In this document: positions 249 through 62,420 of the stretch, one piece after another | Position numbering within the stretch: the first letter of the stretch is position 1 | Layout: each line of letters opens with the position of its first letter | Origin: Trichobilharzia szidati | Lineage: Eukaryota > Platyhelminthes > Trematoda > Strigeidida > Schistosomatidae | NCBI GenBank assembly: GCA_944472155.2 | Contig: OX235271.1 | Span: 39,792,633-39,856,632 of the forward strand | DNA: 64,000 bases | Direction: 5' to 3' | Position numbers and translations under genes: made by a program | Notes under the pieces: model-generated | What the model saw: only the letters and a program-made list of their open reading frames with translations | The model's database searches: none | What the model was told of the DNA's origin: nothing

Positions 249-440
249 ATTTTCTTGGTCCAAGTGATCCAGTGGATAATGCTCTGACGTTTGAAACTAT
301 GGACATTGGGTTCGAGTCACAGTGGGAACATCATCACACTGAGGAATGTAGGTATATCCAGTAACGAGTCCCAAATAGGACGAAATGTGTATCCTGGATT
401 CCACTGCTAGTCACCATCCACCGATTAACTTCTGAGTTAA
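249..440 (+). repeat. Smalpha-type SINE, 5' half with hammerhead
   Basis: The segment holds a Pol III B-box-like site (GGGTTCGAGTC near 308), a hammerhead region (351-405) and the following CTGCTAGTCACCATCCACC block. The same order is seen at 22,490-22,690. It is oriented away from the minus-strand half at 105-248. No complete A box is evident, so it is probably an old, diverged copy. Confidence 0.7.
351..405 (+). ncRNA. Degenerate Smalpha hammerhead ribozyme
   Basis: Stem I strands ATCCAG and CTGGAT are present, stem II (GTCC / GGAC) is perfect, and the GAAA core box follows directly. The other core box, normally CTGATGAG, reads TAACGAG, so the conserved C and two further core positions are changed. 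The fold should form, but self-cleavage is unlikely in this copy. The family function is co-transcriptional self-cleavage of SINE RNA. Confidence 0.65.
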
Positions 441-6804: not shown

Positions 6805-7520
6805 TGAGTGCTTAATTAAATGTATATTTTATTTATAAGAAATGTTCTAATGACCTGATAATTCCTCATTTCACCTCTCATCTCATAAGAGAATGTTACT
6901 TAATTATTGCCAGGTAAATAGATTTCATTTCATTTATAAAATCGGATAGCAAGAGGAATACGAGTGAGAACAGATATTAACTGAATGAAGGTTTCAATGG
7001 ATGAGCTGTGATTAGTGAAATCCAAGACTAGATATGCTTAATCTTATTCCACATTAATTTGTTTATTATATTTATATATATATATCACACAGTGATATAT
7101 CAGTATTATCAATCATAACTGATATGATTATGATGAATAATAAATTGTGTTCGAAACCTCGTCATCCAGTAATTGATATTGTTTCACTTTGTGTGATATA
7201 TAATACATCTAATAAACAAAACAATATGGAATTACTTACTACCACAGTACCCGAGTTTTACACGTATATCATTACGCAAAATCTTCGTTCGAAAGATGAG
7301 AGACAACCGTAAGAACCATAGTAATACACATAATCGTGTGATGTAATCAAGGCAATTTGAAAGTCACATAGAAGGTCAGACGAGAACAAATTAAGTTCTG
7401 TAGTAACTTGATAAAATATTAAGGTATGAGATAATCAAATCTGTGTTGACCATGCCGTGAGCCAAAGCTGATGCAGAGGCTGCAGTTTTGGTTCGCGTTT
7501 GTTTTACAACCGTATATGAA
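6805..7520. repeat. 0.7-kb PLE-terminus module, copy 2 with empty site beside it
   Basis: Inverted partner of 3,955-4,658. Its PLE terminus lies at about 7,050-7,260 in plus orientation, ending in GGAATTACTTACTACCACAG. Just beyond it, at 7,560-7,600, the sequence matches the two flanks of the PLE at 12,695 joined together, which makes this the uninterrupted version of that locus. Confidence 0.8.
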
Positions 7521-7632
7521 TCAGTGTTTCCCATGCAAATCACTAAGGCCTCGGCACTGCAAATTATACAGAATCATACTTTGTATGAGTGGCTGCTTTA
7601 ACTTTCCAGATAACACCGAACAAATTTTCTTC

Positions 7633-8030
7633 TTATGATGAGTACACGGTGTTGAACATATATTCAGTTACAACATTCTTTATCGATCCACTGTGACATT
7701 TTTGTAGTGAAGTAGGATAATGTTCCTTGATACTTTCAGACGAAACAGACACTGAATCACCTATATCTCTCGCTCCACTGGAAACGATGATTTCATAAAC
7801 ACACATACATGTGGTCAAATGCGGCAGCTTATCTTCAGAGTTATTGGACAACACTGGGTGGCAACAGAATACCAGTCTTAATGTAGAAGCAAAGAATGTT
7901 GTTTTCAGGGATTTTGACATTCCGTTCATTAGAGTATTGGCCACAAGGTTGTCTTTGAACTCCACATTGATGCATAGAATACTCTTCAACATATTGAAGT
8001 GTGGTTTTCTTTATTGCTTTTAGGTTTTAT
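7633..8030 (-). pseudogene. PLE C-terminal fragment (inverted partner at 10.85 kb)
   Basis: The 119-residue frame contains a degraded GIY-YIG entry (VYEIIVSSGARDIG in place of VYEISCSCGARYIG) and a KEHYP block. The segment is repeated in reverse at 10,845-11,215. Together with RT remnants at 8,230-8,470 and 9,953-10,760 it forms one decayed minus-strand PLE. Confidence 0.7.
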
Positions 8031-8615: not shown

Positions 8616-9118
8616 ATATGTGTAAAACATGGGTAATGTGGTAGTGAGTATTTCCATATTAACTCCATAATGGTTAAGATTTTATTTTGATAAATCACAC
8701 GGTGTTGTACAGTTATATTAACTGATGACGTTTCGAGCACAAACTATTGCTCATAATCATATCAAGTTACTCACACAACTTCTTTCCTTCATTTATATAC
8801 ATGTGTGGAATCGATTAGATATTGGAATAAAATTCAATATGAGATAATGTACATTCAGAAATAATAGTACGAATGTTATTAATCTGAATGTACATTATCT
8901 CATATTGAATTTTATTCCAATATCTAATCGATTCCACACATGTATATAAATGAAGGAAAGAAGTTGTGTGAGTAACTTGATATGATTATGAGCAATAGTT
9001 TGTGCTCGAAACGTCATCAGTTAATATAACTGTACAACACTGTGTGATTTATCAAAATAAAATCTCAACCACTATGGGGTTATACTCTACCACAGTGCCC
9101 AAGTTTTATACTTATACT
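8615..9118. repeat. Foldback of two PLE termini
   Basis: Arms of about 240 bp are nearly perfect reverse complements. Each contains the ACTGATGACG..TTTCGAGCAC core and the CATGTGTGGAATCGATTAG segment. The structure would extrude a very stable hairpin. Confidence 0.85.
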
Positions 9119-12680: not shown

Positions 12681-12694
12681 TATGCTTCTGTATA
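12681..12694. repeat. 14-bp target-site duplication, left copy
   Basis: TATGCTTCTGTATA occurs here and at 14,893-14,906, directly abutting the ends of the PLE. The corresponding empty site near 7,580 has a single copy, with one base different. Confidence 0.9.
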
Positions 12695-12788
12695 CCATAT
12701 TAGTTTGTTTATTAGGTATATCACACAGTGAAACAGTATTATTTACTGGATGACGTTTCGAACAAAATTTATTGTTCATAATCATATC
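12695..12788 (-). repeat. PLE inverted terminus, 5' side
   Basis: Exact reverse complement of 14,762-14,855 by eye. On the minus strand it contains the hairpin GAACA..TGTTC followed by GAAACGTC, the PLE hammerhead-like signature. Confidence 0.9.
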
Positions 12789-14763
12789 TGTAGACAAGCT
12801 GAAACCTGAGGATGTCATCCCTAAAATAGAAGTAGCACTAAGTGGAATAGACAAAACTACGGCTGATGAAGTACGGGCACAATGTGCACTAACATTGAAA
12901 CGACAAAAATGTGGAAAGCCAAACCTGACAAAACAAGAGTTAGAAGCCCTGAAACACCTTAAGAATAACAAGGATATAGTTATCACAAAGTCAGACAAAG
13001 GAAATGCAACGGTAGTATTAGACAAATCAGACTACTTGGACAAGGTAAACACTCACATACGAACAGGACCATATGAGGAAATTAATAAACCAATTGATAC
13101 AGTTATGAATAAAGTTAAGAAATCCACAGCGGATCTTATACGCCGAATGAAGCCGTTTCTAGGTGAGTCTAAGTGGTTTAACTTAATGCCCAAAACTAAT
13201 AACCCCAGTAGGATGTATGGTGTTGTTAAAGTTCATAAGTCAGGATATCCTATTAGGCCTATAGTTGATTTTAGAAATTCACCTACTTATGAATTATCTA
13301 AATAATTAGCCATGGTATTAAATCCCCTAAAAATCCACTCGAAATCTAGACTAACTAATTCTTATGAACTCAAACGTAGATTAGATAATTTAAAATTAGA
13401 TAATGAAGAAAAAATGGTTAGTTTTGACATAGTCAGTTTATACACACGTATACCAATAAATATGGCTATAGAGGCAGTCAGAAACGAACTCATTTCTGAC
13501 CAAGAACTCGAACTTAGGACAAAAGTGCCACTTGAGGACATAATGCTGGGAGTACAGCTATGCCTGACTTCCACAGTATTTAAATTCCAAGGGAAAATAT
13601 ACAAACAAACTGAGGGAGTTGCCATGGGATCACCAATATCCCCAGTGGTAGCAGATATATTCATGGATAAGTGGGAAACCATAGCGATTAAAACGTTCAA
13701 CCCCACCCCAAAAGTATGGTGGAGGTACGTAGACGACACATTCACTGTACTTAGAACACAAGATGTAGATAGATTTTTCGAACATATCAACTCTAAGGTT
13801 GAAGCAATTCAATTCACTTATGAATTGGAAAATCAGGAAGGGGAGCTCCCAATGTTAGATTGTAACGTAATGAGGAAAGAAGATGGGAAGGTAAACACTA
13901 GTGTTTACAGGAAACCCACACACTCCAACAGATATTTAGACTTCCGATCATCCCATCCTATGTCAGTAAAAATAGGATTGGTGAAATGTTTAAATGACAG
14001 AGCACAAAAATTAAGTAGTACCAAAGAAAACCTAAAACAGGAACTAACACACATAAAAGAAGCCTTAAAACTTAATAATTACCCGGATAAATTAGTCAAG
14101 AAATATGTAAAGAAAAGTAAAAATAAAATAAATAATGATAGTAGTGATAGTGATAATAACAATAATATTAATGACGACACCAACAATAAAGAATCTAAAT
14201 CATCAGTAGTAATTCCATACAAGGAAGGAACCTCGGAAGCCCTACGCAGAATTCTTAACAAGGCAGGAATAAAAACGGCATTCAAACCCACAAACTCAAT
14301 TAGAAACAAGCTTTGTCGGTTAAAGGATCCTGTAGAGCCTTTAAAACAAAACAATTTAGTTTATCTAATACCCTGCAATGATTGTCAGGTCAAATACATA
14401 GGTCAAACTAGTAGAACAGGGGCAGTCAGACTAGCTGAACATAAAAACTTAGCAAAATCTAGATTGGTTGACCCGAATAAGATAAGAAATCTAGAGAATA
14501 GTTCAGCTATAGCACTACATGCAGTCACACACAACCATACAATAGGATGGGATAGGATGACAGTTTTAAAATCTAATGTCACAGGGTATAGGGAGAGATT
14601 GATAACAGAAGCTTTGTTTATCGAATCAACTACAAATACATGTAATAGGAATGATTCATCACCTGTCCCCGATATTTGGAAAATTCTACTACCCATACGA
14701 CGAATAGGAGAGAACAAAGAAAACTATAAAACTCAAGTGTCAAAGTCGTGTGATCACAATTGA
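12772..14763 (+). pseudogene. PLE reverse transcriptase / GIY-YIG endonuclease, one stop
   Basis: A single reading frame is broken only by TAA at 13,303-13,305; both sides are in the same frame (177 and 483 residues). RT motifs appear in order: GNATVVLDKSDY (motif 1), YGVVKVHKSGYPIRPIVDF (motif 2), MVSFDIVSLYTRIPI (motif 3), EGVAMGSPISPVVADIFM (motif 4), WWRYVDDTF with the catalytic YVDD (residues about 139-142 of the second part), ELPMLDCNV and VYRKPTHSNRYLDF. After an Asn/Ser-rich linker comes the GIY-YIG nuclease: VYLIPCNDCQVKYIGQTSR, then a conserved Glu in LITEALFIES. The stop falls in LSK*LAMV between motifs 2 and 3. The N-terminal region found in full-length PLEs is absent and the frame opens in the inverted terminus. 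The terminal TGA overlaps the 3' terminus by two bases. All catalytic residues otherwise look intact. Confidence 0.9.
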
Positions 14764-14855
14764 TATGATTATGAACAATAAATTTTGTTCGAAACGTCAT
14801 CCAGTAAATAATACTGTTTCACTGTGTGATATACCTAATAAACAAACTAATATGG
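14762..14855 (+). repeat. PLE terminus, 3' side, hammerhead-like
   Basis: Contains ATGATTAT, stem GAACA / TGTTC, then GAAACGTC and a CAGTA..TACTG hairpin. The order resembles the PLE hammerhead pattern CTGANGA-stem II-GAAAC-GTC, but two invariant core bases differ, so activity is doubtful. Confidence 0.6.
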
Positions 14856-14892
14856 AATTACTTACTACCACAGTGCCCAAGTTTTACACATA

Positions 14893-14906
14893 TATGCTTC
14901 TGTATA
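14893..14906. repeat. 14-bp target-site duplication, right copy
   Basis: Same 14 bases as 12,681-12,694. Confidence 0.9.
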
Positions 14907-16344: not shown

Positions 16345-16535
16345 TCCAGCGTTGGTGGCACAGTGTTACAATGCTCACCAACCCGTCTCATGTGGTTTGG
16401 GATTCGATCCCCACCTGAAACCCTCCTTTAAGCCGCTAAGCCAGCAGTAAGACTGTCAAGCGGAGAAGGTTAAGCATGAGCCAGGCTAGCAACCCCATCC
16501 TGTAAAAATAAACACCAATACTATCGAAACTTCAA
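16345..16535 (+). repeat. tRNA-derived SINE variant
   Basis: GCGTTGGTGGCACAGTG (A-box region) and GGGATTCGATCCCCACC (B box) give a tRNA-like head. The body AAACCCTCCTTTAAGCCGC to GGCTAGCAACCCCATCC differs from the 12.35-kb SINE. An identical copy in reverse is at 27,607-27,797 in the other arm. Confidence 0.75.
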
Positions 16536-18458: not shown

Positions 18459-18499
18459 AATTGGATCTCGGTGTCACACAGAATTTGATTGATCGACTG

Positions 18500-18735
18500 A
18501 TCGATTGATTACGGGATTTCATCATGAACTGACATGCGTTAGAGAACCATTGGGAAACCTAGAAGTGTTGGACAGTTGTTTCGTTCTACACCAACACTCT
18601 TCACCAATAGGCTCCCACCTCCAAGGTTTGAACATTAAACCTCCCTGTTACAAAGTGAAACAACAGGTTGGGTGTAAGGACAAATACTCGCCAGCGATGA
18701 GATTGGCTAGTGTTAGTCTCTCGGTATTGTGAATT
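18500..18735 (-). repeat. Hammerhead SINE (second family)
   Basis: Minus-strand order: tRNA-like head, then the hammerhead-like region (GTGAAGAG core, GAAC then GAAACAACTGTC), then the family tail TTCCCAATGGTTCTCTAAC..GTCAGTTCATGATGAAATCC. Forms a head-to-head pair with the plus copy at 18,755-18,935. Confidence 0.7.
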
Positions 18736-18754
18736 GGCAGAAGTTGGAATTCAC

Positions 18755-18935
18755 GGGTCACTTGATTGAGTAGCAGTGAATTAGTGGTCTACGAGTCCAA
18801 CTTGTAACAGGAAGATCATCGGTTCCAACACCGGTGAGTCAGTACTTTCGAAGAGTCCTGGACTGCTGCAAAACAGTTTTTCAATGGTTCTCTAATCGAT
18901 ATCAGCAAGTGATGAAATCCTCTGACCAATCAAAT
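18755..18935 (+). repeat. Hammerhead SINE (second family), degenerate
   Basis: Head with TTAGTGGTCTACGAGTCCAAC and a B-box-like GGTTCCAACACC, a decayed ribozyme region (GAAGAGTCCTGGAC..AAAACAG) and the tail CAATGGTTCTCTAATCG..GATGAAATCC. Mirrored at 26,100-26,285. Confidence 0.65.
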
Positions 18936-19479
18936 CCCCGAAAACCAACACTTTAATTATGATTTTAGTCAGTATTACAGCAACAGAATAGGCGATTAAT
19001 TTACACAACATCTATTTGGAAGACTTGCAAGAGACAGTATCAAATTATTTAATAAAAACTCAGTAATTTTGCCATTAGTGTAACAGATAACTTGCCTTGA
19101 ATGGTACTAGACTGATCTCCGGCTAATTTGTTTCTTAATCCTGAAGAAGACCAAGTGTAAATGCCTACTAGGAACCATTTTCGACCTAAAATTTGCATAA
19201 AGGAAAATCAATACAACATAAATATAGAAGAATATTAACACTTAAAATGTCTCCGTCATACCACTGATACTGTCATACCGTATCACCACCCTCGAGTATG
19301 CTTACACTTATACTAAATACTGGCGTCTGATTAGGAAACATTATTTACAACATGACATTTGATTGAAATTCAAACGCTGAAGTGCATTGGCAGTGCTCAC
19401 CTGATTGTCTTCAGTCACTCTTAATAAAAACAGAAGTGACTTATGCCAGGCCAAACCAGTTAAACAGCGATCGAGTTGA

Positions 19480-19860
19480 AGCATTTTGATGGATTGTGAC
19501 CATCAGTAGAATCCAGGAAGCGCATTTTGACATGGATGAACCTGAATTCCCATTGAGTAAACGTGTCCCCATTGAGGTCTGAACCCAGTACGCATCGTTC
19601 CCAACATCAAAGCGTTTTCCACCAGACTAATTGGGCCATATCAGCCACCTCTTGTGCAATAGGTACAGTTATCGCGATTATTTTTAATTAAATTCTGATT
19701 TTCTCGTTGACTGACTGGACCGAAACGTTCGACTTATGTTGACATGTCGGATCCGTGTGCGGATGCTTCGACGACGTCTGAAAATCATCTTCCAATAGGT
19801 TGGTGAAATGTGGCTAACAGTGGAGTCGAGGATGCACACTTAGTCCTCTCTGTGACTTAC
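19480..19860 (-). repeat. Tandem Smalpha unit between two ribozyme sites
   Basis: On the minus strand, 19,860-19,700 is the Smalpha 3' half starting at its cleavage region (GCATCCTCGACTCCACTG). 19,680-19,480 is the next 5' half ending in a second ribozyme region (TGCGCTTCCTGGATTCTACTG). A complete monomer therefore lies between two consecutive cleavage positions. Mirrored at 25,180-25,560 plus. Confidence 0.7.
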
Positions 19861-20046
19861 CAGCCAGACATACCTGCATTCCAATGGATTCTAAGTCAGG
19901 TCGACCAAGTGACTATCAAAATTACTATTTTCTGTTCTGTCTACTGTGAATATTAGCTATAAGTGCAGGGGAAATACTGGAATGAACTTAGTTTGGAGAT
20001 GAAAACTTATCTGCAGATCTTGAATTAGAAACATTAAAAGATATAT

Positions 20047-20482
20047 AAATGACTCCAAACAGATCCGAGACAAGTTTCCAAGCTTCTATGAGATTCACTC
20101 CGAAAGCTACCTTTCGTCAGCAGAAAACCTAACTATTGCAAACGAATTTGACTTTCCGGTTGAAATAATCATCAGTAAAATCAAGGTTGCAACAAACCTG
20201 AATGAAACCCCACACTGGTTTTAAGGATTACAATCAACTGGCATCACGTATGAATGATCTTATGGTTTTCAGCTTACCAGTGCATAAAGATTCAGTCGAA
20301 CTGAAGTAAGGAGAGGACAAAACACTACTGGGCAAATATGCTGAAGATATACATGATTTTATGGATATGTCAAAACAAAATATGTCCCTCAAAGCTCAGA
20401 ATCTGCATCAGCTGTCGGACACAACGACAAACAATTTCAAATTCAATAGTAAGCCTAGTGAATGTATCAAAAGCATCTCCTA
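20047..20482 (+). pseudogene. Unidentified protein-coding pseudogene fragment
   Basis: The first frame reads NDSKQIRDKFPSFYEIHSES and continues SYLSSAENLTIANEFDFPVE, IIISKIKVATNLNETPH. At about 20,217 the coding signal passes to the next frame: FKDYNQLASRMNDLMVFSLP, VHKDSVELK, an in-frame TAA, then GEDKTLLGKYAEDIHDFMDM, SKQNMSLKAQNLHQLSDTTT and a final stop after CIKSIS. The composition is that of a soluble protein, not of the mobile elements nearby, and the whole is uninterrupted by introns, which suggests a retrocopy or a single exon. I do not recognise the family. An identical broken copy lies at 24,544-25,005 in the opposite arm. Confidence 0.5.
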
Positions 20483-20539
20483 ATTATAAAGTCTATTGAT
20501 GAGACTTCAGATTAGGCGAAATGGTTTCTTTATTTGAAT

Positions 20540-20758
20540 GGTTGGAGGATTTCATCATGAGCTGACATCAGGTAGAGAACCATCGGAAAACATGCATGGG
20601 TACTGAATAGCTGTTTCACCAGACTAGTTTGAGACTCTTCATCAGTACACACCCACACCACATGGGTTCGAACCCAGGACCTTCTCGTTTAAAGGCTAGC
20701 GAGCTCGCAGATAATTAGGCCACTAGATTACAAACTGATCCACCCTCCAGCCAAAGAA
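20540..20758 (-). repeat. Hammerhead SINE (second family), mirror of 24.3 kb
   Basis: Contains the tail (GGTTGGAGGATTTCATCATG), a ribozyme-like region and a tRNA-like head with GGGTTCGAACCC as B box. The sequence agrees with the mirrored copy at 24,275-24,487. Confidence 0.75.
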
Positions 20759-21000
20759 TTCTAACATCTGTCAATTCATGACATTGCCCTACCAATTCGG
20801 AATGTCTTATTCGGTGAGTTACTGTCTTACCTTCAACCTGCTGCACCCTACTGGCCACGGATTCCCACTAGAAATCCAGGATAACTGCCTGAATAAGGCC
20901 AGTTGCTAGTGAGCATCAGATCTATTTCAAGTGTTCATTTGTAGGCTAATTACGCTTGGTTGGTTGGAGGATTTCAATTTTTTGTGTCTTTATTCTGGTC

Positions 21001-21628
21001 TGCAGTGTTTGTGTAATAGTAGCATTGCATTTTGTGGTGTTTTCGCGCAAGTAGTGTTGGTGTCAGTGTATGTGTAATAGTAGCATTGCATTTTGTGGTG
21101 TTTTCGCGCAAGTAGTGTTGGTGTCAGTGTATGTGTAATAGTAGCATTGCATTTTGTGGTGTTTTCGCGCAAGTAGTGTTGGTGTCAGTGTATGTGTAAT
21201 AGTAGCATTGCATTTTGTGGTGTTTTCGCGCAAGTAGTGTTGGTGTCAGTGTTTGTGGAATAGTAGGATTGCATTTTGTGGTGTTTTCGCGCAAGTAGTG
21301 TTGGTGTCAGTGTATGTGTAATAGTAGGATTGCATTTTGTGGTGTTTTCGCGCAAGTAGTGTTGGTGTCAGTGTATGTGTAATAGTAGCATTGCATTTTG
21401 TGGTGTTTTCGCGCAAGTAGTGTTGGTGTCAGTGTATGTGTAATAGTAGCATTGCATTTTGTGGTGTTTTGGCGCAAGTAGTGTTGGTGTCAGTGTATGT
21501 GTAATAGTAGCATTGCATTTTGTGGTGTTTTGGCGCAAGTAGTGTTGGTGTCAGTGTATGTGTAATAGTAGCATTGCATTTTGTGGTGTTTTCGCGCAAG
21601 TAGTGTTGGTGTCAGTGTATGTGTAATA
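21001..21628. repeat. 61-bp minisatellite, about ten copies
   Basis: The unit GTGTAATAGTAGCATTGCAT.. repeats with a 61-bp period from 21,011, 21,072, 21,133 and so on to 21,621. Variants include GTGGAATAGTAGG at 21,255 and TTGGCGC in place of TTCGCGC near 21,470 and 21,530. It begins exactly where the left palindrome arm ends (CTGCAGT at 21,000-21,006). Frames read through it are not coding, since 61 is not a multiple of three. Confidence 0.97.
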
Positions 21629-22690: not shown

Positions 22691-22779
22691 TATATGTTTA
22701 TAAACAGTCACTTGTATATAACTATACTCAGAAATTAGGATTTGAGAAATAATCAGTGAAATGTTGTTTGACTTATTTC

Positions 22780-22925
22780 ACGATTTCATCGTGTACTGTC
22801 AGTGGTTAGAGAACCACTGAAAAACCCGGGAGTACTGGACAACTGTTTCGTCTTAGTGTTTGGAACTGTTTATCAGTACCCACCCACCAGGGTTCGAAAC
22901 CAGGGCCTGTCGGATTAATGCTCTA
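22780..22925 (-). repeat. Hammerhead SINE (second family)
   Basis: On the minus strand: GTACTG (stem I), ATAAACAG in place of the core box, stem II ending AAGAC, GAAA, CAGTTGTC at the cleavage site, then CAGTAC closing stem I (22,832-22,879). The tail is TTTTTCAGTGGTTCTCTAACC. Forms a pair with the next copy. Confidence 0.7.
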
Positions 22926-23098
22926 CGAGCTCGCCTTGTAACCGGAAGTTCCTGTGTTCGAACACCGTTGGTGTGTGTGTGCTCACCAAGAGTGTCAATC
23001 TCTAGGATGAAACAGCTCTCCAGTACTCTCAATTTTTCCAGCGTTTCTCTAATCGATGTCAGCTCATGATGAAGTCCTGTAACCAAGCGAATTCCTGA
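22926..23098 (+). repeat. Hammerhead SINE (second family)
   Basis: tRNA-like head (CTACGAGCTCGCCTTGTAAC, B box TGTTCGAACACC), ribozyme-like region with GATGAAACAGCTCTCCAGTAC, and the tail TTTCTCTAATCGATGTCAGC..GATGAAGTCC. Oriented away from the preceding copy. Confidence 0.7.
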
Positions 23099-23616
23099 GT
23101 GGCAATATTGTTATCTCGTTTGTGGTTCAATAATTAAATGGCCGAGAATGGAATTGTTTATTGTTTAGACAAAGAATTGAAGCTTCGGAGATTGTGGGAT
23201 ATGGCTTAAATTTTCAGGTTGTGAAGCGTGCTAAGTGTAAAAGAGGAAAAGTCATCTCAGGAGGAACAAAATGAATTTGGAATTTTGGCAAGGGCTTTAA
23301 AATCTTTTTTTTATCTTGTTTGATTGATGTATACTTCTGCCATATGATTTTATCTAATGAAAAAAATAATTAATTTCATCAAATGAATAATATTCACACA
23401 TCAGATTCTGTCTAGAACAAACGTAACAACTTAATTACTTTGATCAAGTCTCTAGTTTTGAAACTCCTCTCGATTGATTTTCTTGAACCAATGGGTGTTG
23501 AGTTTGAGTCCCTGTCGAATAGCTGTAACTCGGTTGGATACATCTTGGAGTGCCTTGAATTTCACGTCTAGCTGCCAGCATCTATGATTTACAATGTTTA
23601 ATCCTAAACAGTTTCG

Positions 23617-23994: not shown

Positions 23995-24274
23995 TCACGT
24001 CTATCATAAAGGCTAGAAATACTGCAGACCAGAATAAAGACACAAAAAATTGAAATCCTCCAACCAACCAAGCGTAATTAGCCTACAAATGAACACTTGA
24101 AATAGATCTGATGCTCACTAGCAACTGGCCTTATTCAGGCAGTTATCCTGGATTTCTAGTGGGAATCCGTGGCCAGTAGGGTGCAGCAGGTTGAAGGTAA
24201 GACAGTAACTCACCGAATAAGACATTCCGAATTGGTAGGGCAATGTCATGAATTGACAGATGTTAGAATTCTTT

Positions 24275-24487
24275 GGCTGGAGGGTGGATCAGTTTGTAAT
24301 CTAGTGGCCTAATTATCTGCGAGCTCGCTAGCCTTTAAACGAGAAGGTCCTGGGTTCGAACCCATGTGGTGTGGGTGTGTACTGATGAAGAGTCTCAAAC
24401 TAGTCTGGTGAAACAGCTATTCAGTACCCATGCATGTTTTCCGATGGTTCTCTACCTGATGTCAGCTCATGATGAAATCCTCCAACC
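24275..24487 (+). repeat. Hammerhead SINE (second family), reference copy
   Basis: Head: GTGGCCTAATTATCTGCGAG, GCTCGCTAGCC, B box TGGGTTCGAACCC. Ribozyme-like region 24,379-24,427: GTACTG, ATGAAGAG, stem II starting TCTC, GAAA, CAGCTATT, CAGTAC. Tail: TTTTCCGATGGTTCTCTACC to GATGAAATCCTCCAACC. GTACTG/CAGTAC makes a perfect stem I, and CAGCTG-type sequence after GAAA gives a short self-complementary stem III. The architecture equals that of Smalpha but all stems and the SINE body are different. Confidence 0.75.
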
Positions 24488-24543
24488 ATTCAAATAAAGA
24501 AACCATTTCGCCTAATCTGAAGTCTCATCAATAGACTTTATAA

Positions 24544-25005
24544 TTAGGAGATGCTTTTGATACATTCACTAGGCTTACTATTGAATTTGAAATTGTTTGT
24601 CGTTGTGTCCGACAGCTGATGCAGATTCTGAGCTTTGAGGGACATATTTTGTTTTGACATATCCATAAAATCATGTATATCTTCAGCATATTTGCCCAGT
24701 AGTGTTTTGTCCTCTCCTTACTTCAGTTCGACTGAATCTTTATGCACTGGTAAGCTGAAAACCATAAGATCATTCATACGTGATGCCAGTTGATTGTAAT
24801 CCTTAAAACCAGTGTGGGGTTTCATTCAGGTTTGTTGCAACCTTGATTTTACTGATGATTATTTCAACCGGAAAGTCAAATTCGTTTGCAATAGTTAGGT
24901 TTTCTGCTGACGAAAGGTAGCTTTCGGAGTGAATCTCATAGAAGCTTGGAAACTTGTCTCGGATCTGTTTGGAGTCATTTATATATCTTTTAATGTTTCT
25001 AATTC
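24544..25005 (-). pseudogene. Unidentified pseudogene fragment, mirrored copy
   Basis: Same broken frames as 20,047-20,482 (KQIRDKFPSFYEIHSES.. and EDIHDFMDMSKQNMSLK..), with the same frameshift and stop, so the damage predates the palindrome. Confidence 0.5.
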
Positions 25006-25179
25006 AAGATCTGCAGATAAGTTTTCATCTCCAAACTAAGTTCATTCCAGTATTTCCCCTGCACTTATAGCTAATATTCACAGTAGACAGAACAGAAAAT
25101 AGTAATTTTGATAGTCACTTGGTCGACCTGACTTAGAATCCATTGGAATGCAGGTATGTCTGGCTGGTAAGTCACAGAG

Positions 25180-25560
25180 AGGACTAAGTGTGCATCCTCG
25201 ACTCCACTGTTAGCCACATTTCACCAACCTATTGGAAGATGATTTTCAGACGTCGTCGAAGCATCCGCACACGGATCCGACATGTCAACATGAGTCGAAC
25301 GTTTCGGTCCAGTCAATCAACGAGAAAATCAGAATTTAATTAAAAATAATCGCGATAACTGTACCTATTGCACAAGAGGTGGCTGATATGGCCCAATTAG
25401 TCTGGTGGAAAACGCTTTGATGTTGGGAACGATGCGTACTGTGTTCAGACCTCAATAGGGACACGTTTACTCAATGGGAATTCAGGTTCATCCATGTCAA
25501 AATGCACCTCCTGGATTCTACTGATGGTCACAATCCATCAAAATGCTTCAACTCGATTGC
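25180..25560 (+). repeat. Tandem Smalpha unit, mirrored copy
   Basis: Mirror of 19,480-19,860: 3' half from 25,190, then the 5' half with TTGCACAAGAGGTGGCTGAT, to a second ribozyme region near 25,510. Confidence 0.7.
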
Positions 25561-26099
25561 TGTTTAACTGGTTTGGCCTGGCATAAGTCACTTCTATTTT
25601 TATTAAGAGTGACTGAAGACAATCAGGTGAGCACTGCTAATGCACTTCAGCGTTTTAATTTCAATCAAATGTCATGTTATAAATAATGTTTCCTAATCAG
25701 ACGCCAGTATTTAGTATAAGTGTTAGCATACTTGAGGGTGGTGATACGGTATGACAGTATCAGTGATATGACGGAGACATTTTAAGTGTTAATATTCTTC
25801 TATATATATATGTTGTATTGATTCTCCTTTATGCGAATCTTAGGTAGAAAATGGTTCCTAGTAGGCATTTACACTTGGTCTTCTTCAGGATTAAGAAACA
25901 AATTAGCCGGAGATCAGTCTAGTACCATTCAAGGCAAGTTATCTGTTATACTAATGTCAAAATTACTGAGTTTTTATTAAATAATTTGATACTGTCTATT
26001 GCAAGTTTTCCAAATAGATATAATGTAAATCAGTCGCCTATTCTGTTGCTGTAATACTGACTGAAATCATAATTAAAGTGTTGATTTTCGGGGATTTGA

Positions 26100-26525
26100 T
26101 TGATCAGAGGATTTCATCACTTGCTGATATCGATTAGAGAACCATTGAAAAACTGTTTTGCAGCAGTCCAGGACTCTTTGAAAGTACTGACCCACCGGTG
26201 TTGGAACCGATGATCTTCCTGTTACAAGTTGGACTCGTAGACCACTAATTCACTGCTACTCAATCAAGTGACCCGTGAATTTCAACTTCTGCCAATTCAC
26301 AATACCGAGAGACTAACACTAGCCAATCTCATCGCTGGCGAGTATTTGTCCTTACACCCAACCTGTTGTTTCACTTTGTAACAGGGAGGTTTAATGTTCA
26401 AACCTTGGAGGTGGGAGCCTATTGGTGAAGAGTGTTGGTGTAGAACGAAACAACTGTCCAACACTTCTAGGTTTCCCAATGGTTCTCTAACGCATGTCAG
26501 TTCATGATGAAATCCCGTAATCAAT
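26100..26525. repeat. Head-to-head hammerhead SINE pair, mirrored
   Basis: Mirror of the 18,500-18,935 pair: minus copy 26,100-26,285 and plus copy 26,290-26,525 (GGTGAAGAGTG.., GAACGAAACAACTGTCC, then the CCCAATGGTTCTCTAAC tail). Confidence 0.7.
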
Positions 26526-26639
26526 CGATCAGTCGATCAATCAAATTCTGTGTGACACCGAGATCCAATTTGGAATTTTGACAATGCTTCAAAATCTTTA
26601 TTTTATCTTGTTTGGCTAATTTATAATGAGGATAAAGGC

Positions 26640-27797: not shown

Positions 27798-28309
27798 AAT
27801 AGTAAAAATGTTATCTGTGTCATCCTGTATTAAAACGCTAAGCAGGCATCTGCGTTTCACGCATTCAAGTGACAAATGACCGAAATTGAAGCCTATATGG
27901 GAGTCTAACGTCATAGAGATAATAATCACTATTAACTGTAGATATCCATTCAATGAAGAATGATTTGCTATCAAGATAGGATTCATGTTTGGTCGATACA
28001 TTCACCTATCACTTGTGCTAAATTTGTGGTCATTTTGCGTGACAAAGTGTAGATAGATACCTATTATATCTAATTAAACTAAGCATTGCAGACGAAAATA
28101 CTAAGACACGTACCTTTTGTTCCTCTGAATGACTATAAATTGACATAAAGCATTTGAATCAATGTTATCTTACTTCGATTCTCCGATTAAAATACTACAG
28201 CACATCCACATTTTCACGCTTCACGATGTACTAAAGGTTGTTCACAATCAAATGCGAACAACCTTGTATTATGAAGCACAAGTGAATATCTGATAAATAT
28301 ATTTTAATT

Positions 28310-28632
28310 TGTCAAAGGATTTTATCATGTGCCGACATTATTTAGAGAACCATTGGAAAACCCGCAGGGAGTACTGGACAGCTGTTCAACCAGACTTGTT
28401 TGAGGCTTATCAGCAGTACGCACCAACCTTCAGAGTTTGAACTCAGGAGCGTCTGGTTACAAGTCTAGCGAGTTCACAAAACATTAAACCACTGGGACAC
28501 GATTCAATGGTCAGTCGATGAATTCTAACTTCTGCCAAACTAGGCCGATGAAACAGATATCCAGTACTCCCTGCGTGTTTTCCAATGGTTCTCTAATTGA
28601 AGTGAGCTCACAATGAAATCCTCCAACCAATA
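28310..28632. repeat. Hammerhead SINE pair outside palindrome 1
   Basis: Minus copy 28,310-28,510: GTACTG at 28,419-28,414 is followed by CTGATAAG, the copy closest to the canonical CTGATGAG core, with CAGCTGTC then CAGTAC closing stem I at 28,371. The GAAA box has lost one A. Plus copy 28,510-28,632 keeps GATGAAACAGATATCCAGTAC and the tail TTTTCCAATGGTTCTCTAA. Confidence 0.7.
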
Positions 28633-28639
28633 AAACAAA

Positions 28640-29150
28640 TAACGCTACAGAACAAATACTTGAAAATGTATTTTAAGCGAAATTGAACTTTGAAGTATGC
28701 AAAACAAATGCAAGCGTGCGTAACTGAGCAAAGCAAGTCAATAAAACAACCAACAAATCAATGTTCAATCATGCAGTGATAAATATTCGGTAAGCATACG
28801 TAAAATTAGTTCCTGCAAAAGCAAAATATGTGGAAGAAGATGAATTGATTTAATAAGCATTCACATAGAGATAATATAGGGGCACTACAGAAGTACGATG
28901 TGGCAAAATAAAATATGTTCACTTAATATGATGATGAATTTTGTCAAAAACTGAGTCATAAACGGAAATAATTGAAATTTCAGTCATCCAGTTAGTCATT
29001 AGAAGAATTCTGATAACTTCTTAATTGGTTCGTGTGTTTTTTGTTTCTCTCAATTTCAGGAGTTCTGACTCGAATTCGAAGTGAAAATATTAACCGGAAA
29101 ACCAGTATGAGCGATATGTGTATATTTATTTATTATTTTATTTTATTATA
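28640..29150. other. Intergenic, nothing recognised
   Basis: AT-rich with no open frame or family repeat I can identify. Confidence 0.35.
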
Positions 29151-35060: not shown

Positions 35061-36034
35061 CAATGAAAACTCAAGGAAATGATAAGAGTATTTATTACCG
35101 TCAAGTGTTAATGAAAGATTAATTTGAATGAATGGTCACTGAGAAGTGCAATTCATAAGGATTAATCTACTTTCTATTTACACAATTAATGGTTGTGTAA
35201 TCCAACCGCTTTTAGATTATCAAACCAGACGATTCAAATTCTACAATTCTACAATGTGATCTTTCAAATAGTGGATCTATGAGAATTAGATTGATTTGAA
35301 CGCAGATGTTTTCAACAACCGATTTTAGTTAAAGAACCACTGTAAACCAGTAAACGGTAGATGTCTTTATCGTTCTAGTCTGTGACTTCTCAACTTAAGA
35401 TATTATGGGGCATTTTCATAATTCAGCTGAAGCTGTCGTCAGATCTAGTTTATGTATTCATCAGGAGAAATTCAGCGTTAACTAATTACCTTGGAGGATT
35501 GGAAAGTCAACATCAGCCTCATCAAATTTTGAGCACGTCTTATTATGTCACTTTGAAACCTAAATATAGAACAAATAACTGTTCTCATGAGGATTTATTA
35601 CATCATTATTAATACCAAGTAGCTATTCAGCTAACACTTGATATAAAAATACTCAGCCATAAGATCAATAGAATACCTATGAAAAGAATGATGAACTATT
35701 CGAATGACATCAAAAAATATTCCCCCAAAAATATAGAGAATGACTACATGTTCTCAAAATATCTGAAAATTCCATACGAATGAAAAGCACACCAGGGTAT
35801 CTTCTTTTGAACAATAGCTATCGCCGACAAAATCGAATCTTTTATTTAAGCCAACAATCCATTCTCCGAAAAAAAAATATCCCGATACTGAGCTATCCAT
35901 TAAATGTACAATTTTTTCTTCATGAGCGTGTTTCACTTCATTTTTCGATGATACTACATTATCTCAATCGGCCTAAAAAGATTCATTTGCGTGTTACTAT
36001 TTATGTGTAATAACATGTGAAAAATTTGTTGGAT

Positions 36035-36365
36035 TTATTCATGAAAAAACATCAAATGGAGAATTATTGAAGGCTAGAACTGAACAGCCGTTTCATCCTA
36101 CTTTGAGACTATTCAATTGTGAGCAGACATAACGACATTAAGGATCCGACTTGAGATCTTCAGGTTACGCAGCCCAGCTCGTTAACTCATCCAGTCATTT
36201 GGATCAGAATTCAGTTACTCATGAATTCGTGATACAATACTATCGTCATCAGTCAGTAAATCTCCATTAGAGTGATTCAGTGGTCAGTGAGCTCAGCCTT
36301 GTAATATGCAGGTACTGGAACCGATCCCTGGTGTGACTGCGTGGGCGACTTGCGAAAGAGCCCCA
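36035..36365. repeat. Hammerhead SINE (second family) pair
   Basis: Minus copy 36,035-36,240: on that strand AATAGTCTCAAAGTAGGAT then GAAACGGCTGTTCAG. A plus-strand head follows at 36,275-36,360 (AGTGATTCAGTGGTCAGTG, GGAACCGATCCC). Mirrored near 57,500-57,835. Confidence 0.55.
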
Positions 36366-37210
36366 AAATAGAATGTTACGTTTGACTAGTTTATGACAGA
36401 AAGACTGTTTGAACAATCTTTTCACAGTATCAAAATCTATTTGGACGTTCCAATTAAATCTGTAAGAATTATTCTCTACTCTCAGAGGCTGTATTTCATC
36501 ATTTTGACATTTGCATATCACATGTTGACTTAATCCTAATTCCTTGTCTCTGTGCCTGCTTTATCTCTAATTTTATAATGCGTCTCTTTTCGGTTGTGTG
36601 TACATTGATCATGTGTTGAGTGACGTAATTTTGTTTGACTGAATGAAGGTCATTCCTCACCTATGACTGCCCACACCAATGGTCAGTATGTGATTGTTGT
36701 GGACAAAGTTTTCCATCCCAGCTTTGTGTGAATATTCTACTTGATTCTGAGCACTCGTTTTGCACTTAGACTGGACTGTAAAGCTGCCCAACGGCATTGC
36801 TCAGGTCATTTCGAGTTGTTAACGTTGTCACAGTTTAAAAAAACCGTAGAACTATTCAAAGACAACCTTCTTTTTCTTATTTTCTCGAGTGGTTCGTGAT
36901 TGTGCGTGTCTTAAGGAAGTTCTGCCAGCCGTACAGTAGGAGACATGGAACGCTTTCCTGTGTCTAGATCATAACGAGCCGGTTTAGTCTGCGTATAGTT
37001 CCCCTGATTTTCAATTACTTTTGTAAGTGATATTAGTTCGTGACAAATGCGAACAACCTAACAACTGAAATAAATCCAAATCCCCACAATTCTCATAATC
37101 GAATTAAGTCAAAGGACAACACAAAGCAGTTACATATTTTAAGTCAAGAACAGATTTCGATGAACGATGGTATATAAGACTGAGTAACTGCTATGAAATG
37201 TTGAATATTA

Positions 37211-47764: not shown

Positions 47765-47920
47765 GACTAAATGGCTTGGCCTAGTAACCTGAAGGTTGTG
47801 GTTTCTGCCTTCGGTGGGATCATGGATGCGTACGGGTGAAGAGTTCCAGACTAGGACGAAAGAGCTATCCAACGTTCCTTAGTTTTCATTAGTCATTTAA
47901 CTGATTTCAATGGGTGATCA
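47765..47920 (+). repeat. Hammerhead SINE (second family)
   Basis: ACTAAATGGCTTGGCCTAGT head region, then GGGTGAAGAG core, stem II ending AGGAC, GAAA, GAGCTATCC at the cleavage position. The tail is diverged. Single copy in the palindrome 2 centre. Confidence 0.55.
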
Positions 47921-48079
47921 GACTTATTTTTATCCAATGACAGATAACAACCATTAATATTATAGATATAGAATTTGAGCACTGTGGTGGAATATATTTA
48001 CATAACAGAATAATTTTATTTGATGAACATCCTGCTTTATTAACCTTTATTGCTTGTTTTAAATCTCATGAATACCTGT

Positions 48080-49692: not shown

Positions 49693-51549
49693 CTACGAAG
49701 TGAAGGCACAGAGTAATCTACACCAAAGATAATAGCATTCAAATAGTAGTTTGAAACCTGAAATGCCTTTATTCGTGCAAGTCAGTCTAACAGTTACCAC
49801 CTTGTACAAAGTTGGCTTATCGTCATTAAACTGGCCATTGACTTTCGTCTCTTCGAACGGACCGACACTAGCATAATCACTGCATAAGACACGTTGGTTC
49901 ATGGACGGCTCTTTTACTGCATATGACAACACCAACGATGACTGACTGACACCAGTTGAAGAACTTAGCGGTGCATCAGAAGCTGTCGCTGTTTGACCTT
50001 TAGAAGGTTGTATAACCGCAAGATTACCATCACTGCTATCTTTCATTATTAGCAACAGTTCAGCCTTAACTTCTGTCGATAGTTGGGCTACACTCGAATC
50101 ATTTATACTGACGGTTTCACTAGTATCCATACATTCTGCAACCGCATCTGTCTTTAATTCTGCTTCACGTTCAAGTTGTACAGAACCTTTAGTCAACTCA
50201 GTAGTAGTAGGCATTCCGCTAATCTCATTATGATCAGCCACAGACAAATGTTAACTATCATGACTATTGTCACAAATACCCACTTTACCGCCGTCTGTAT
50301 GATCGACTTCATCATTTTCAAACTCTTTAATAACAACCGTAGATGACTTAGGTTCTTCTTCATGAATCCTTAAAGTTTTAATTCCTTTAATCTGACTAGT
50401 AATACCTTGTAAACTTGTGGAATCAGAACTGAACATTGAAGCTGTAACCCTCTTCTTATGCACAAACTGCGGTGTCGTCTGAGACACGCTTTTCAACAAT
50501 GGATTACCAGTTACGACTACAGGCTTCTTCACCGCACCATTATCGACACACGATTCGGAGTCAGAACACGATGACGCTGACTTCACATTCAACTTGCCAC
50601 TAAACTTGCTCGTTGCTTCACAGTTCGCCTTTGTATGCACTTCTTGCAAACGGACGAAGCACAACCGTGTTTGTCTTGCAGCTTGTAACTTATCCGTTGG
50701 GGACGTCTCACCAAAGCTGTCACAATCATTAGGTTTACTATACACCATACAGCTTTCTCGATATCCACTACGCTGAGACCCCTTCGCCATAAATGATTGC
50801 ATTTTACTCTCTGATTTCTCTATTCCAGGGGTGTGATGCAGTATACTAGCAAACTTGCTCAAAGCTTGGTTGACACTGTCTTTCACCAGGCTAACAATGC
50901 CATCCAACCTGGGCTCTAAACCTTCCTCCTCTAGACGTGAACAAACCTTTATAAACTTCCTTTGTAGACGAACAGGTAATCTCTTGGCAACAGTCTCAAG
51001 CACGGAACTTGAGTTCAATTCATCTATGCAGCTAAGAGACATGAGTGTACTTCTATATACCATCAAATTATCCAAGAACTCTGCAAGTTCCTCTGGATTA
51101 TCATTCAAGTGTGATCCGTTACCTTTCACTGTCTCGAAAATACTACGGGATATCATATATGTTTTTCCAAACGTTTGACGTAGTATCTTCATTGCCTCAG
51201 GATATCCTTCGTTCGGGGGCATAAACTTGCAGCACTGTATGGCTCTTGCAGCCACACCAGTGCAATATCTCAACAAATACATTAACTTCATTTCATCATT
51301 TAATACAAAACCACTCAGCATGACCTCAAACTCTTTGATAAACTGTGAGTAGTTGGCTGGATTTCCATCGAAGTATCGCGGTTCAAACTTAGGCAATCTT
51401 AAGCCCTTACTATCACTTAACGGTGAAGCGTGAACATCAAACTCAACATGCTGAGCATCATACATATCATAACAATTAACAGGCAACTCATCGTTACTTA
51501 CTTTTTTGTCTGCTTCCATGGTGCCATGTCCCTTTCTTGACCCAGGCAT
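49693..51549 (-). pseudogene. BEL/Pao gag-like protein with one in-frame stop
   Basis: From ATG at 51,549 a 432-residue frame (MPGSRKGHGTMEADKKVSND..) carries the DUF1759-like gag block LRLPKFEPRYFDGNPANYSQ, FIKEFEVMLSG, MKLMYLLRYCTGVAARAIQC and EGYPEAMKILRQTFGK, as in BEL/Pao elements. A zinc-knuckle remnant reads CFVRLQEVHTKANC, where the second Cys is Arg and the usual Gly is Val, so RNA binding by this knuckle is probably lost. TAA at 50,251-50,253 interrupts the frame. The same frame continues to 49,693 with a Ser/Thr-rich 184-residue part ending in a hydrophobic, Cys-rich stretch. No protease, RT or integrase motif is visible. The stop could be a mutation or, less likely, a readthrough site. 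Confidence 0.8.
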
Positions 51550-51752
51550 TATCCAACGTCACCAAAGAATCCAAACTGCGTTGATAATCCTTGTCCAAAG
51601 AGAAGCTGGCTGCAGATCAAGTAAGTACACCCAAGATAGTCTCAGAAGGCGCTCCAAAAATCGACCAGATGAATGAAAACTGCCCCAGATGGAACTCCAG
51701 AAAACAAAAAGACAAATTAACTGTTCCAGAAGGCGGACAAAAGAATAAAAAC

Positions 51753-57400: not shown

Positions 57401-57499
57401 TTTAATTGAAACTTCCAAATAGATATGAATACTCTGATTAGATTGTTCAAACTGCCTTTCTGTCGTAAACGGGTCAAATGTAACATTCTATTTTGGGGC

Positions 57500-57835
57500 T
57501 CTTTCGCAAGTCGCACACACAGTCACACCAGGGATAGGATTCAGTACCTGCGTATTACAAAGCTGAGCTCACTGACCACTGAATCACTCTAATGGAGATT
57601 TACTGACTGATGACGATAGTATTGTGTCATGAATTCATGAGTAACTGAATTCTGATGCAAATGACTGGATGAGTTAACGAGCTGGGCTGCGTAACCTGAA
57701 GATCTCAAGTCGGATCCTTGATGTCGTTATATCTGCTCACAATTGAAGAGTCTCGAAGTAGGATGAAACAGCTGTTCAGTTCTAGTCCTCAATAATTCTC
57801 CATTTGATGTTTGTTCATGAATAAATCCAACAAAT
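57500..57835. repeat. Hammerhead SINE pair, mirrored copy
   Basis: Mirror of 36,035-36,365. The plus copy shows TTGAAGAGTCTCGAAGTAGG, ATGAAACAGCTGTTCAG and the tail CCTCAATAATTCTCC. Confidence 0.55.
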
Positions 57836-58225: not shown

Positions 58226-58749
58226 CTGAATAGCTAATTGGTGTTAATAGTGATGTAACAAATTCTCATGGGAACATTTATTTGTTCTATAATTCAGTTT
58301 TAAAGTGACATAATAGGACGTGCTGATGTTGACTTTCCAATCCTCCAAGGTAATTAGTTAACGCTGAACTTCTCCTCATGAAAACACAAACTAGATCTGA
58401 TGACAGCTTCATCTTAATTATGTAAATGCCCCATAATAACTTAAGTTGAGAAGTCACAAACTAGAACGATAAAGGCAGCTACTGTTTACTGGTTTACAGT
58501 GGTTCCTTTACTAAAATCGGTTGTTGAAATCATCTGTGTTCAAATCAATCTAATTCTCATAGATCCACTATTTGAAAGATCACATTGTAGAATTGTAGAA
58601 TTTAAATCGTCTGGTTCGATAATCTAAAAGACGTTTGATTACACAACCATTAACTGTGTAAATAGAAAGCCGAGTAATCTTCATCAAATGCACTTCTCAG
58701 TGACCATTGGTTCAAAATAATCTCTCATTAACACTTGACGCTGATGAAT

Positions 58750-62150: not shown

Positions 62151-62420
62151 GCCATTTCCATGCACATTTTGTCACGAAGTAACAACACCTAGAGATCAGA
62201 GGAGACCAGGAAGTACTCAACAATTGTTTCATCTTGGTTGGAGACTCTTCATTACTGCACATACACACCTTCACTAGAGAACAGACCCAGGAAATTCAGG
62301 TTACGATGCTAAGCTAGTTTGTCATTCAGTTACGTGGGCCGGGATTCAGTGTCTCGTGAATTCTAGAGTCGGGAAAACTGTCCAGGGTTCCTTAATTCCC
62401 AGTGATCTTTTCAAGTAATG
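62150..62420. repeat. Hammerhead SINE (second family) pair, degenerate
   Basis: Minus copy: ATGAAGAGTCTCCAACCAAG, ATGAAACAATTGTTGAGTAC. A plus-strand remnant (AGTCGGGAAAACTGTCCAGG, CCTTAATTCCCAGTGATC) follows from about 62,340. Confidence 0.5.

What the first reader, a model, noticed from the sequence alone, without database searches (positions are those of the whole stretch)
24275..24487. A second SINE-like family carrying a hammerhead-type ribozyme
At least a dozen copies (18.5, 18.8, 20.5, 22.8, 23.0, 24.3, 26.1, 26.4, 28.3, 28.6, 36.1, 47.8, 57.7, 62.2 kb) share a tRNA-like head with a GGTTCGAACCC B box, then a motif with the Smalpha ribozyme layout but different stems: GTACTG, a CTGANGAG-like box (closest CTGATAAG at 28,413-28,406), stem II ending GGAC, GAAA, self-complementary CAGCTG, GTC, CAGTAC. 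The tail GGTTCTCTAA..GATGAAATCCTCCAACC is unrelated to Smalpha. Stem I is conserved in several copies while the core varies, so the motif looks inherited from an active ancestor. I do not recall a named schistosome family with this structure.
Basis: partly seen in the sequence, partly recalled or inferred. Interest (0 to 1): 0.88.

Follow-up and report, generated by a model that had tools for sequence, protein, structure and literature searches.

The report
Hammerhead-ribozyme retroelement family in bird schistosome
A bird blood fluke carries thousands of copies of a small mobile element with a self-cutting RNA, different from the well-known one, and its insertion scars look like those left by Penelope-type retroelements.

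Summary
All 14 listed positions carry one repeat family, and its consensus is a type I hammerhead ribozyme. The genome is taken to be Trichobilharzia szidati. There the canonical 34-base core occurs at 16,483 places (up to 2 mismatches; reversed-pattern control 0), 3,120 of them exact. It resembles the Smalpha-like family of this genome only in the ribozyme core and around the B box. The unit is 394 to about 412 bp, longer than reported; the window copies are old and broken.

Many insertions are head-to-head inverted units whose two outer ends differ: one is 25-31 nt longer. Young ones are flanked by 10-13 bp target duplications; one is a 64-unit array between a single duplication. This is the published footprint of Penelope-like elements; one such element in this window shows it, and the Smalpha-like family shows the same end pairing. 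The enzyme itself is not identified. A lineage with C3 changed to A, predicted inactive, has 2,463 exact copies, so catalysis may be dispensable for spread.

Schistosoma mansoni has named hammerhead families of similar unit size (W25.2, W26.2, W27.2). This may be an orthologue; sequences could not be compared.

The parts
24051..24503 (+). Reported copy in full: tail repeat (24051-24102) followed by one unit; not an inverted pair
   Evidence: 84% identical to the hand-made consensus unit over 393 columns
24305..24315 (+). A-box-like TGGCCTAATTA
   Evidence: read; compared with TGGCTTAATGG of the 394-bp unit
24353..24363 (+). B box GGTTCGAACCC
24379..24427 (+). Hammerhead remnant: GTACTG, ATGAAGAG (A for C3), disrupted stem II, GAAA, CAGCTATT, CAGTAC
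   Evidence: read; alignment; no Rfam match
20524..20976 (-). Copy of the reported element in the other arm of the inverted duplication
18497..18956 (.). Head-to-head pair: 18497-18657(-) short end, 18661-18956(+) long end
26073..26532 (.). Segmental copy of the pair at 18.5-18.9 kb: 26073-26368(-) long end, 26372-26532(+) short end
22766..23100 (.). Head-to-head pair 22766-22934(-) and 22900-23100(+); both ends scored short
   Evidence: hammerhead remnant 22832-22879(-) 26.8 bits
28300..28667 (.). Head-to-head pair 28300-28542(-) short end and 28530-28667(+) long end; the minus arm holds CTGATAAG
36026..36390 (.). Old head-to-head pair; ends not scorable
47771..47921 (+). Old single copy
57469..57833 (.). 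Old head-to-head pair; ends not scorable
62166..62372 (-). Old single copy
356..399 (+). Smalpha-like hammerhead, for comparison (separate family)
   Evidence: Rfam Hammerhead_1 43.9 bits
12695..14892 (+). Penelope-like insertion used as yardstick: inverted short end at left, ORF with RT match, 37-nt longer end at right, 14-bp duplication TATGCTTCTGTATA at 12681-12694 and 14893-14906

Best explanation
A non-autonomous, non-coding retroelement of the metazoan non-LTR retrozyme kind. The unit of 394 to about 412 bp has the A and B boxes of a polymerase III promoter, a type I hammerhead ribozyme, and an AC-rich tail with two preferred ends. Proposed cycle: units are transcribed; canonical copies self-cleave to unit-length RNA; a host ligase may circularise it; the reverse transcriptase of a Penelope-like element copies the RNA at a staggered target, starting near one of two internal sites about 71 and 96-102 nt downstream of the ribozyme cut. 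One cDNA from each target strand gives a head-to-head insertion with one long and one short end between target duplications. Shown here: the family, canonical cores in number, two preferred ends, their pairing, target duplications at young loci, tandem arrays. Inferred: transcription, cleavage, circles, template form, and which enzyme.
For: Ribozyme: 16,483 cores within 2 mismatches and 3,120 exact, controls 0; Rfam cut-off passed in 17 of 38 older loci and 7 of 7 young loci; covariation. Unit: 30 of 30 array units examined are 394 bp, 26 identical; fold z -2.9, 0 of 100 shuffles as stable. Ends: of 30 head-to-head insertions that I picked, 19 have one long and one short end, 0 two long, 2 two short, 9 not scorable (the array judged by eye); of 21 scored at both ends 19 are mixed against 10.4 expected, P about 1e-4, or 18 of 20, P 1.7e-4, without the segmental copy. 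Flanks: shared words average 8.6 against 5.1 in 1,500 mismatched pairings; 7 or longer in 17 of 26 against 11.8%. The 64-unit array lies between one 13-bp duplication. The Penelope-like insertion of this window has the same layout. Literature: inverted pLTR, 31-bp tail optional at one of the inverted pLTRs, 9-bp duplication (PMC3846280, passages); the Anolis Penelope protein cuts and extends both strands and starts at two internal AC-rich sites that define the tail (PMC11167929).
Against: No RNA data: transcription, cleavage and circles are not shown. No Penelope element sharing sequence with this unit was found: no significant match to seven 3' regions of RT- or YIG-type ORFs of the window, of which only one ORF has a Pfam RT match. 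Not all copies are inverted pairs: 9 of 32 loci (L006, L007, L008, L052, L053, L054, L065, L066, L097) and the reported copy itself were left out as single, tandem or too complex, and L127-L130 were fetched because their cores lay as close inverted pairs. Nine of 30 insertions could not be scored and some ends lie between the two sites. The Anolis study saw no difference in start site between the strands, so one site per strand is my inference. G+C of the unit is about 50%, against <45% stated for metazoan retrozymes. A TTTT lies shortly after the cut and could stop polymerase III early. One shuffle measure (further pair types, 11 against 12.5) does not exceed chance.
Confidence: 0.7

Rival explanations
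1. Penelope-type insertion, but the inverted arm comes from a single cDNA that folds back and primes itself, as suggested for rotifer Penelope elements, not from two reverse transcriptions.
For: Head-to-head arrangement and palindromes at such junctions led the authors of PMC3846280 to propose self-priming (passages). The unit holds CGAGCTCG and GGTTCGAACC palindromes. Arms are identical or nearly so in L098 (183 bp), L128 (132 bp) and L127 (99.3%).
Against: Arms differ by about 6% in L129 and L130, which still have target duplications, so two templates seem to have been used there. Self-priming does not explain why one arm ends at the long and the other at the short site.
Confidence: 0.15
2. 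An ordinary tRNA-derived SINE moved by a LINE; the inverted pairs are later insertions next to each other or twin priming.
For: A and B boxes at tRNA spacing; dispersed copies; Smalpha is called a SINE.
Against: Both outer ends are 3' tails at one of two sites, with one target duplication around the whole pair; twin priming would not repeat the tail at both ends. No poly(A) or microsatellite tail was seen in the printed ends. No LINE sharing the tail was looked for.
Confidence: 0.08
3. Satellite DNA spread mainly by recombination, with the ribozyme a relic; single copies are fragments.
For: 64-unit array with irregularly placed variant units; related W elements of S. mansoni are large satellites (PMC8490949).
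Against: Target duplications around pairs and around the whole array; thousands of dispersed places in both orientations.
Confidence: 0.07
4. A diverged Smalpha subfamily or chance motif rather than a separate family.
For: Same layout and near-identical stem II and loop II.
Against: Similarity only 27 bp of core and 21 bp at the B box; stems I and III differ by compensatory changes; reversed-pattern control 0.
Confidence: 0.03

Closest known systems
W25.2, W26.2 and W27.2 hammerhead W-element families of Schistosoma mansoni (PMC8490949; abstract and passages seen)
   Same: Tandem and dispersed units of 399-428 bp with a type I hammerhead of very short stem III and only weak similarity to the Smalpha hammerhead; candidates chosen from W25.2 and W36.2 cleave in vitro
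   Different: Sequence relation not testable here. Penelope-type ends are not mentioned in the passages I saw; one W25.2 copy is noted with a possible target duplication
Smalpha / Sjalpha hammerhead elements (W36.2, 333-335 bp)
   Same: B box then hammerhead, stem II and loop II nearly identical, self-complementary stem III; the Smalpha-like family of this genome has the same one-long-one-short end pairing
   Different: Other stem I and III sequences, other body and tail; optional tail about 110 nt against 25-31
Metazoan non-LTR retrozymes (PMC7229834; passages seen)
   Same: Small non-autonomous tandem units with type I hammerhead, dimers to large multimers (62-mers in a coral)
   Different: Higher G+C here; polymerase III boxes; an insertion footprint that I did not find described in the passages; circles untested
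Penelope-like elements (PMC3846280 passages; PMC11167929 main text)
   Same: Inverted arm, optional 30-40 bp tail at one end, target duplication, hammerhead upstream of two start sites
   Different: No protein; 0.4 kb; polymerase III boxes; full rather than minimal hammerhead

Membership tests
Type I hammerhead ribozyme | CUGANGA, GAAA, three helices, NUH cut triplet | tested here: met
   3,120 exact canonical cores; 54.1 bits against cut-off 34
Type I hammerhead ribozyme | Compensatory changes in stems | tested here: met
   7 of 14 pairs, score reached by 0 of 500 shuffles; mostly one contrast between two families
Type I hammerhead ribozyme | Self-cleavage | not testable with these tools
   needs in vitro transcription or 5'-OH end data
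Metazoan non-LTR retrozyme | Tandem units of 150-450 bp with type I hammerhead | tested here: met
   64 cores at 394-bp spacing
Metazoan non-LTR retrozyme | Low G+C (<45%) | tested here: not met
   about 50%; a description in PMC7229834, not a strict criterion
Metazoan non-LTR retrozyme | Circular RNA in tissue | not testable with these tools
   no RNA data
tRNA-derived SINE | A and B boxes at tRNA spacing | tested here: met
   starts 44 bp apart
tRNA-derived SINE | Recognisable tRNA | tested here: not met
   none in 56 sources; only weak hits with wrong anticodons at relaxed ARAGORN setting
tRNA-derived SINE | 3' tail shared with a LINE | not tested
   no LINE search was made
Penelope-type insertion | Inverted arm, one end longer by a tail, target duplication | tested here: met
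   not in every copy; tail 25-31 nt against 30-40 bp published
Penelope-like element (as member) | RT and GIY-YIG ORF | tested here: not met
   a 394-bp unit cannot hold one; hence passenger, not member
Smalpha | Similarity over the element | tested here: not met
W25.2, W26.2, W27.2 | Unit length near 400 bp with type I hammerhead | tested here: met
   394 to about 412 bp against 399-428
W25.2, W26.2, W27.2 | Similarity over the unit | not testable with these tools
   no such letters in the held text

The most novel reading that the evidence does not exclude
The hammerhead SINEs and retrozymes of schistosomes, Smalpha included, are passengers of Penelope-like elements. The enzyme copies their RNA at both target strands from two internal start sites, one per strand, and may run many times round a circular template, leaving a 25-kb array of 64 units as one insertion. 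Ribozyme catalysis is not needed for insertion, so a C3-to-A lineage with a predicted dead ribozyme spread almost as widely as the canonical one.
Probability: 0.5. Interest if true: 0.82.

Novelty: new member of a known kind. Interest (0 to 1): 0.66.

Why it matters
Which enzyme moves animal hammerhead retrozymes is open. In the passages I saw, the case for Penelope-like elements rests on co-existence, tandem copies and shared hammerheads (PMC7229834), and no motif is known that points to the partner (PMC7761336). The paired long and short ends give a countable footprint that can be checked in any genome. The A3 lineage is a natural test of whether ribozyme catalysis matters for spread: among otherwise perfect cores there are 3,120 with C3, 2,463 with A3 and only 176 with T3, the transition.

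Tried and rejected
A tRNA-Thr origin of the head was considered from the CTTGTAA loop (recalled); no tRNA model matched, so it was dropped. A loose script scan for hammerheads gave 0 hits in the window and in its controls; it was never checked on a known positive and is not used. A regular expression matched 24 aligned rows for CTGANGA..GAAA, but it reads A3 copies in a shifted register and is not used. The 38 copies nearest to the reported one suggested that A3 is the family norm (A in 28, C in 7 of 38); the genome-wide counts show C3 commoner, so that was a sampling bias of the search. The unit has no significant similarity to Penelope-like 3' regions of the window (best E 0.48). An IMG/VR scan for the core found 0. 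The script's target-duplication search gave only 6 bp for L129; the letters printed show AAACTAGTAATC on both sides, just outside the allowed range; it is not counted in the 17 of 26. A count of exact Smalpha-like cores was asked for once and never answered.

Full report
WHERE. The window lies in a genome of 1.11 Gb in 907 contigs; the loci used lie on eight contigs of 69-217 Mb. The RT ORF of the window has a 96% identical relative (55% of the query covered) annotated in Trichobilharzia szidati on a contig of 100,978,174 bases, exactly the length of contig C6 here. I take the host to be T. szidati, a bird schistosome of the family Schistosomatidae.

THE OBSERVATION. A profile of the reported copy gives 16 hits in the window, including all 14 listed positions. 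The copies at 20.5 and 24.3 kb are identical because they lie in the arms of a 2.55-kb inverted duplication (98.6%), so independent copies are fewer than listed. A whole-genome search listed 41 matches after scoring only 40 of 2,702 candidates; 38 further copies were fetched and aligned.

IS IT A HAMMERHEAD. In the window the only match within the family is 26.8 bits against a cut-off of 34. Among the 38 fetched loci, 33 match Hammerhead_1 at E<=1 and 17 pass the cut-off. The canonical core CTGANGAGTCCCAAACTAGGACGAAACAGCTGTC occurs at 16,483 places with up to two mismatches (8,127 + 8,356; reversed-pattern control 0) and 3,120 exactly (1,539 + 1,581; control 0). These counts include members of tandem arrays. 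Seven young loci (L097, L098, L127-L131) all pass; 12 of their 15 hits score 54.1 bits. In an alignment of 16 distinct hammerheads that I chose from this and the Smalpha-like family, 95.5% of cells pair (shuffles 82.2%), 7 of 14 pairs have changes on both sides (shuffles 5.3; reached in 14 of 500), and sliding the partners drops pairing to 19-42%; the number of further pair types (11) does not exceed the shuffles (12.5). Most double changes come from the one contrast between the two families. Stem III is self-complementary with no proper loop, as in Smalpha; from general knowledge such ribozymes work best as dimers.

NOT SMALPHA. A consensus of 30 Smalpha-like loci of the same genome shares with this unit 27 bp of core (92.6%) and 21 bp at the B box (85.7%), and otherwise words of 8-10 bp.

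THE UNIT. At C1:1661362-1686217 the core recurs 64 times at 394-bp spacing. Of 30 units examined all are 394 bp; 26 are identical and 4, at positions 16, 24, 27 and 30, share one base change. A box TGGCTTAATGG and B box GGTTCGAATCC start 44 bp apart and the core starts 27 bp after the B box starts. No tRNA is recognised. The unit folds better than 100 of 100 shuffles, z = -2.9, and the fold brings the two sides of the cut together. My hand-made consensus of the other subfamily is 412 bp long. The reported interval is the 3' half of the element, whose copy runs from about 24051 to 24503.

HOW IT INSERTS. Many loci show a minus copy followed head-to-head by a plus copy, each with a variable 5' cut-off and its tail outward. 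I picked 30 such insertions: 19 from 18 of the 26 larger loci first fetched (L003-L008, L047-L066), 4 from loci fetched because their cores lay as close inverted pairs (L127-L130), 6 from the window and the array. Left out as single, tandem or too complex were L006, L007, L008, L052, L053, L054, L065, L066 and L097 (9 of 32 loci), and in the window the reported copy with its duplicate and the copies at 47.8 and 62.2 kb. Ends cluster at two places: near CCAATCAAA (short) and near ACTTGAAAAT (long), about 71 and 96-102 nt after the ribozyme cut, 25-31 nt apart. Of the 30, 19 have one long and one short end, none two long, two have two short, nine have at least one end that could not be classed (the array by eye). 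Of 21 scored at both ends 19 are mixed against 10.4 expected from the end frequencies (P about 1e-4; 18 of 20, P 1.7e-4, without the segmental copy). Young loci are clearest: 12 bp in L127, 12 in L128, 10 in L130; 6 by script but 12 by reading in L129. The array, with one inverted arm at its left, begins at a short end (L099), finishes at a long end (L131) and is bounded by AAAGTGAAGATGT on both sides, so it entered as one insertion. Whether 64 units were copied in one run, for example from a circle, or a few units grew later by exchange is open; the irregular spacing of the variant units favours some later exchange. The two arms are identical in L098 and L128, 99.3% in L127, but differ by about 6% in L129 and L130, which suggests two templates there.

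THE PENELOPE YARDSTICK. The insertion at 12695-14892 of this window carries an ORF with an RT match (RVT_1). I call it Penelope-like because relatives of the ORF carry the same domains and in some cases GIY-YIG (PF01541), because of a YIG motif read by eye, and because of its structure; no tree was made. It begins with its own 3' end inverted, ends with the same sequence plus 37 nt, and is flanked by a perfect 14-bp duplication. A related stretch of about 6.9-7.7 kb has the flanking sequence without insert or tail. Published Penelope elements show an inverted pLTR, a 31-bp tail optional at one of the inverted pLTRs, and duplications of 8-10 bp (PMC3846280, passages). In the Anolis element the protein cuts and extends both strands and starts at two internal sites whose interval is the tail; no difference in start site between strands was seen there (PMC11167929, main text), so one site per strand is my inference from the pairing of ends. 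The Smalpha-like family behaves alike: of 30 top-scoring loci, 20 had an outer minus and an outer plus tail; all 18 scored at both ends are one long, one short (16 distinct, since two pairs of loci overlap), 2 had one unclear end; 6 loci had a single hit and 4 other orientations.

IS CATALYSIS NEEDED. Among otherwise perfect cores the base after GTACTG is C in 3,120 places, A in 2,463 and T in 176. A transition usually outnumbers a transversion, so A3 is an amplified lineage rather than decay. PMC11167929 states that C3G and G8C abolish cleavage and that such mutants still insert in vitro. That A3 is equally dead is inferred.

WHAT IS KNOWN. Smalpha and Sjalpha are the textbook cases (PMC2770079, passages). 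Stitz et al. 2021 name further hammerhead families in S. mansoni: W25.2 (415-428 bp), W26.2 (399-402) and W27.2 (403), with 39,648, 25,162 and 55,303 autosomal matches, and show cleavage for candidates from W25.2 and W36.2 (PMC8490949, abstract and passages). The family here may be the orthologue of one of them; their letters were not in the text held. Sixteen hammerhead-like RNA clusters were reported in S. haematobium, seven overlapping SINE/tRNA annotation (PMC5993326, passages). Penelope-like RT sequences were reported in T. szidati in 2015 (PMC4465651, passages). That Penelope elements move retrozymes has been proposed (PMC7229834, passages; PMC11722881, passages). In ten searches and the passages read I saw no report of this two-ended footprint for retrozymes or Smalpha; only open-licence papers are held.

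VERDICT. As a kind it is a retrozyme, probably a relative of named W-element families. New here are the Penelope-type footprint shared with the Smalpha-like family, the 64-unit array between one target duplication, and the spread of a lineage with a predicted dead ribozyme.

Noticed in passing
window 18459-21010 and 24017-26570: 2.55-kb inverted segmental duplication, 98.6% identical, arms about 3 kb apart
   Followed up: partly
window 21003-21628: 10.3 copies of a 61-bp tandem repeat, 98% matches, at the inner edge of one arm of the inverted duplication
   Followed up: no
window 12681-14906 and about 6900-7760: Penelope-like insertion with 14-bp target duplication, and a related stretch with the corresponding site empty
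   Followed up: partly
L067-L096: Smalpha-like family: optional tail of about 110 nt and one-long-one-short head-to-head insertions
   Followed up: yes
G000:C1:1661060-1686217: 25-kb array of 64 hammerhead units bounded by one 13-bp duplication
   Followed up: partly
window 8751-8991: Long palindrome that scores as a microRNA precursor on both strands, below the cut-off; perhaps a fold-back transposon
   Followed up: no
window 50254-51558(-): 435-aa ORF matching DUF1759; from memory typical of BEL/Pao gag
   Followed up: no
window 35262-35393(-) and 58445-58577(+): Weak matches to the tail half of the family (18 and 14 bits), perhaps an older related family
   Followed up: no
394-bp unit, shortly after the ribozyme cut: TTTT in CAGGTTTTCC might stop polymerase III just after the hammerhead
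   Followed up: no
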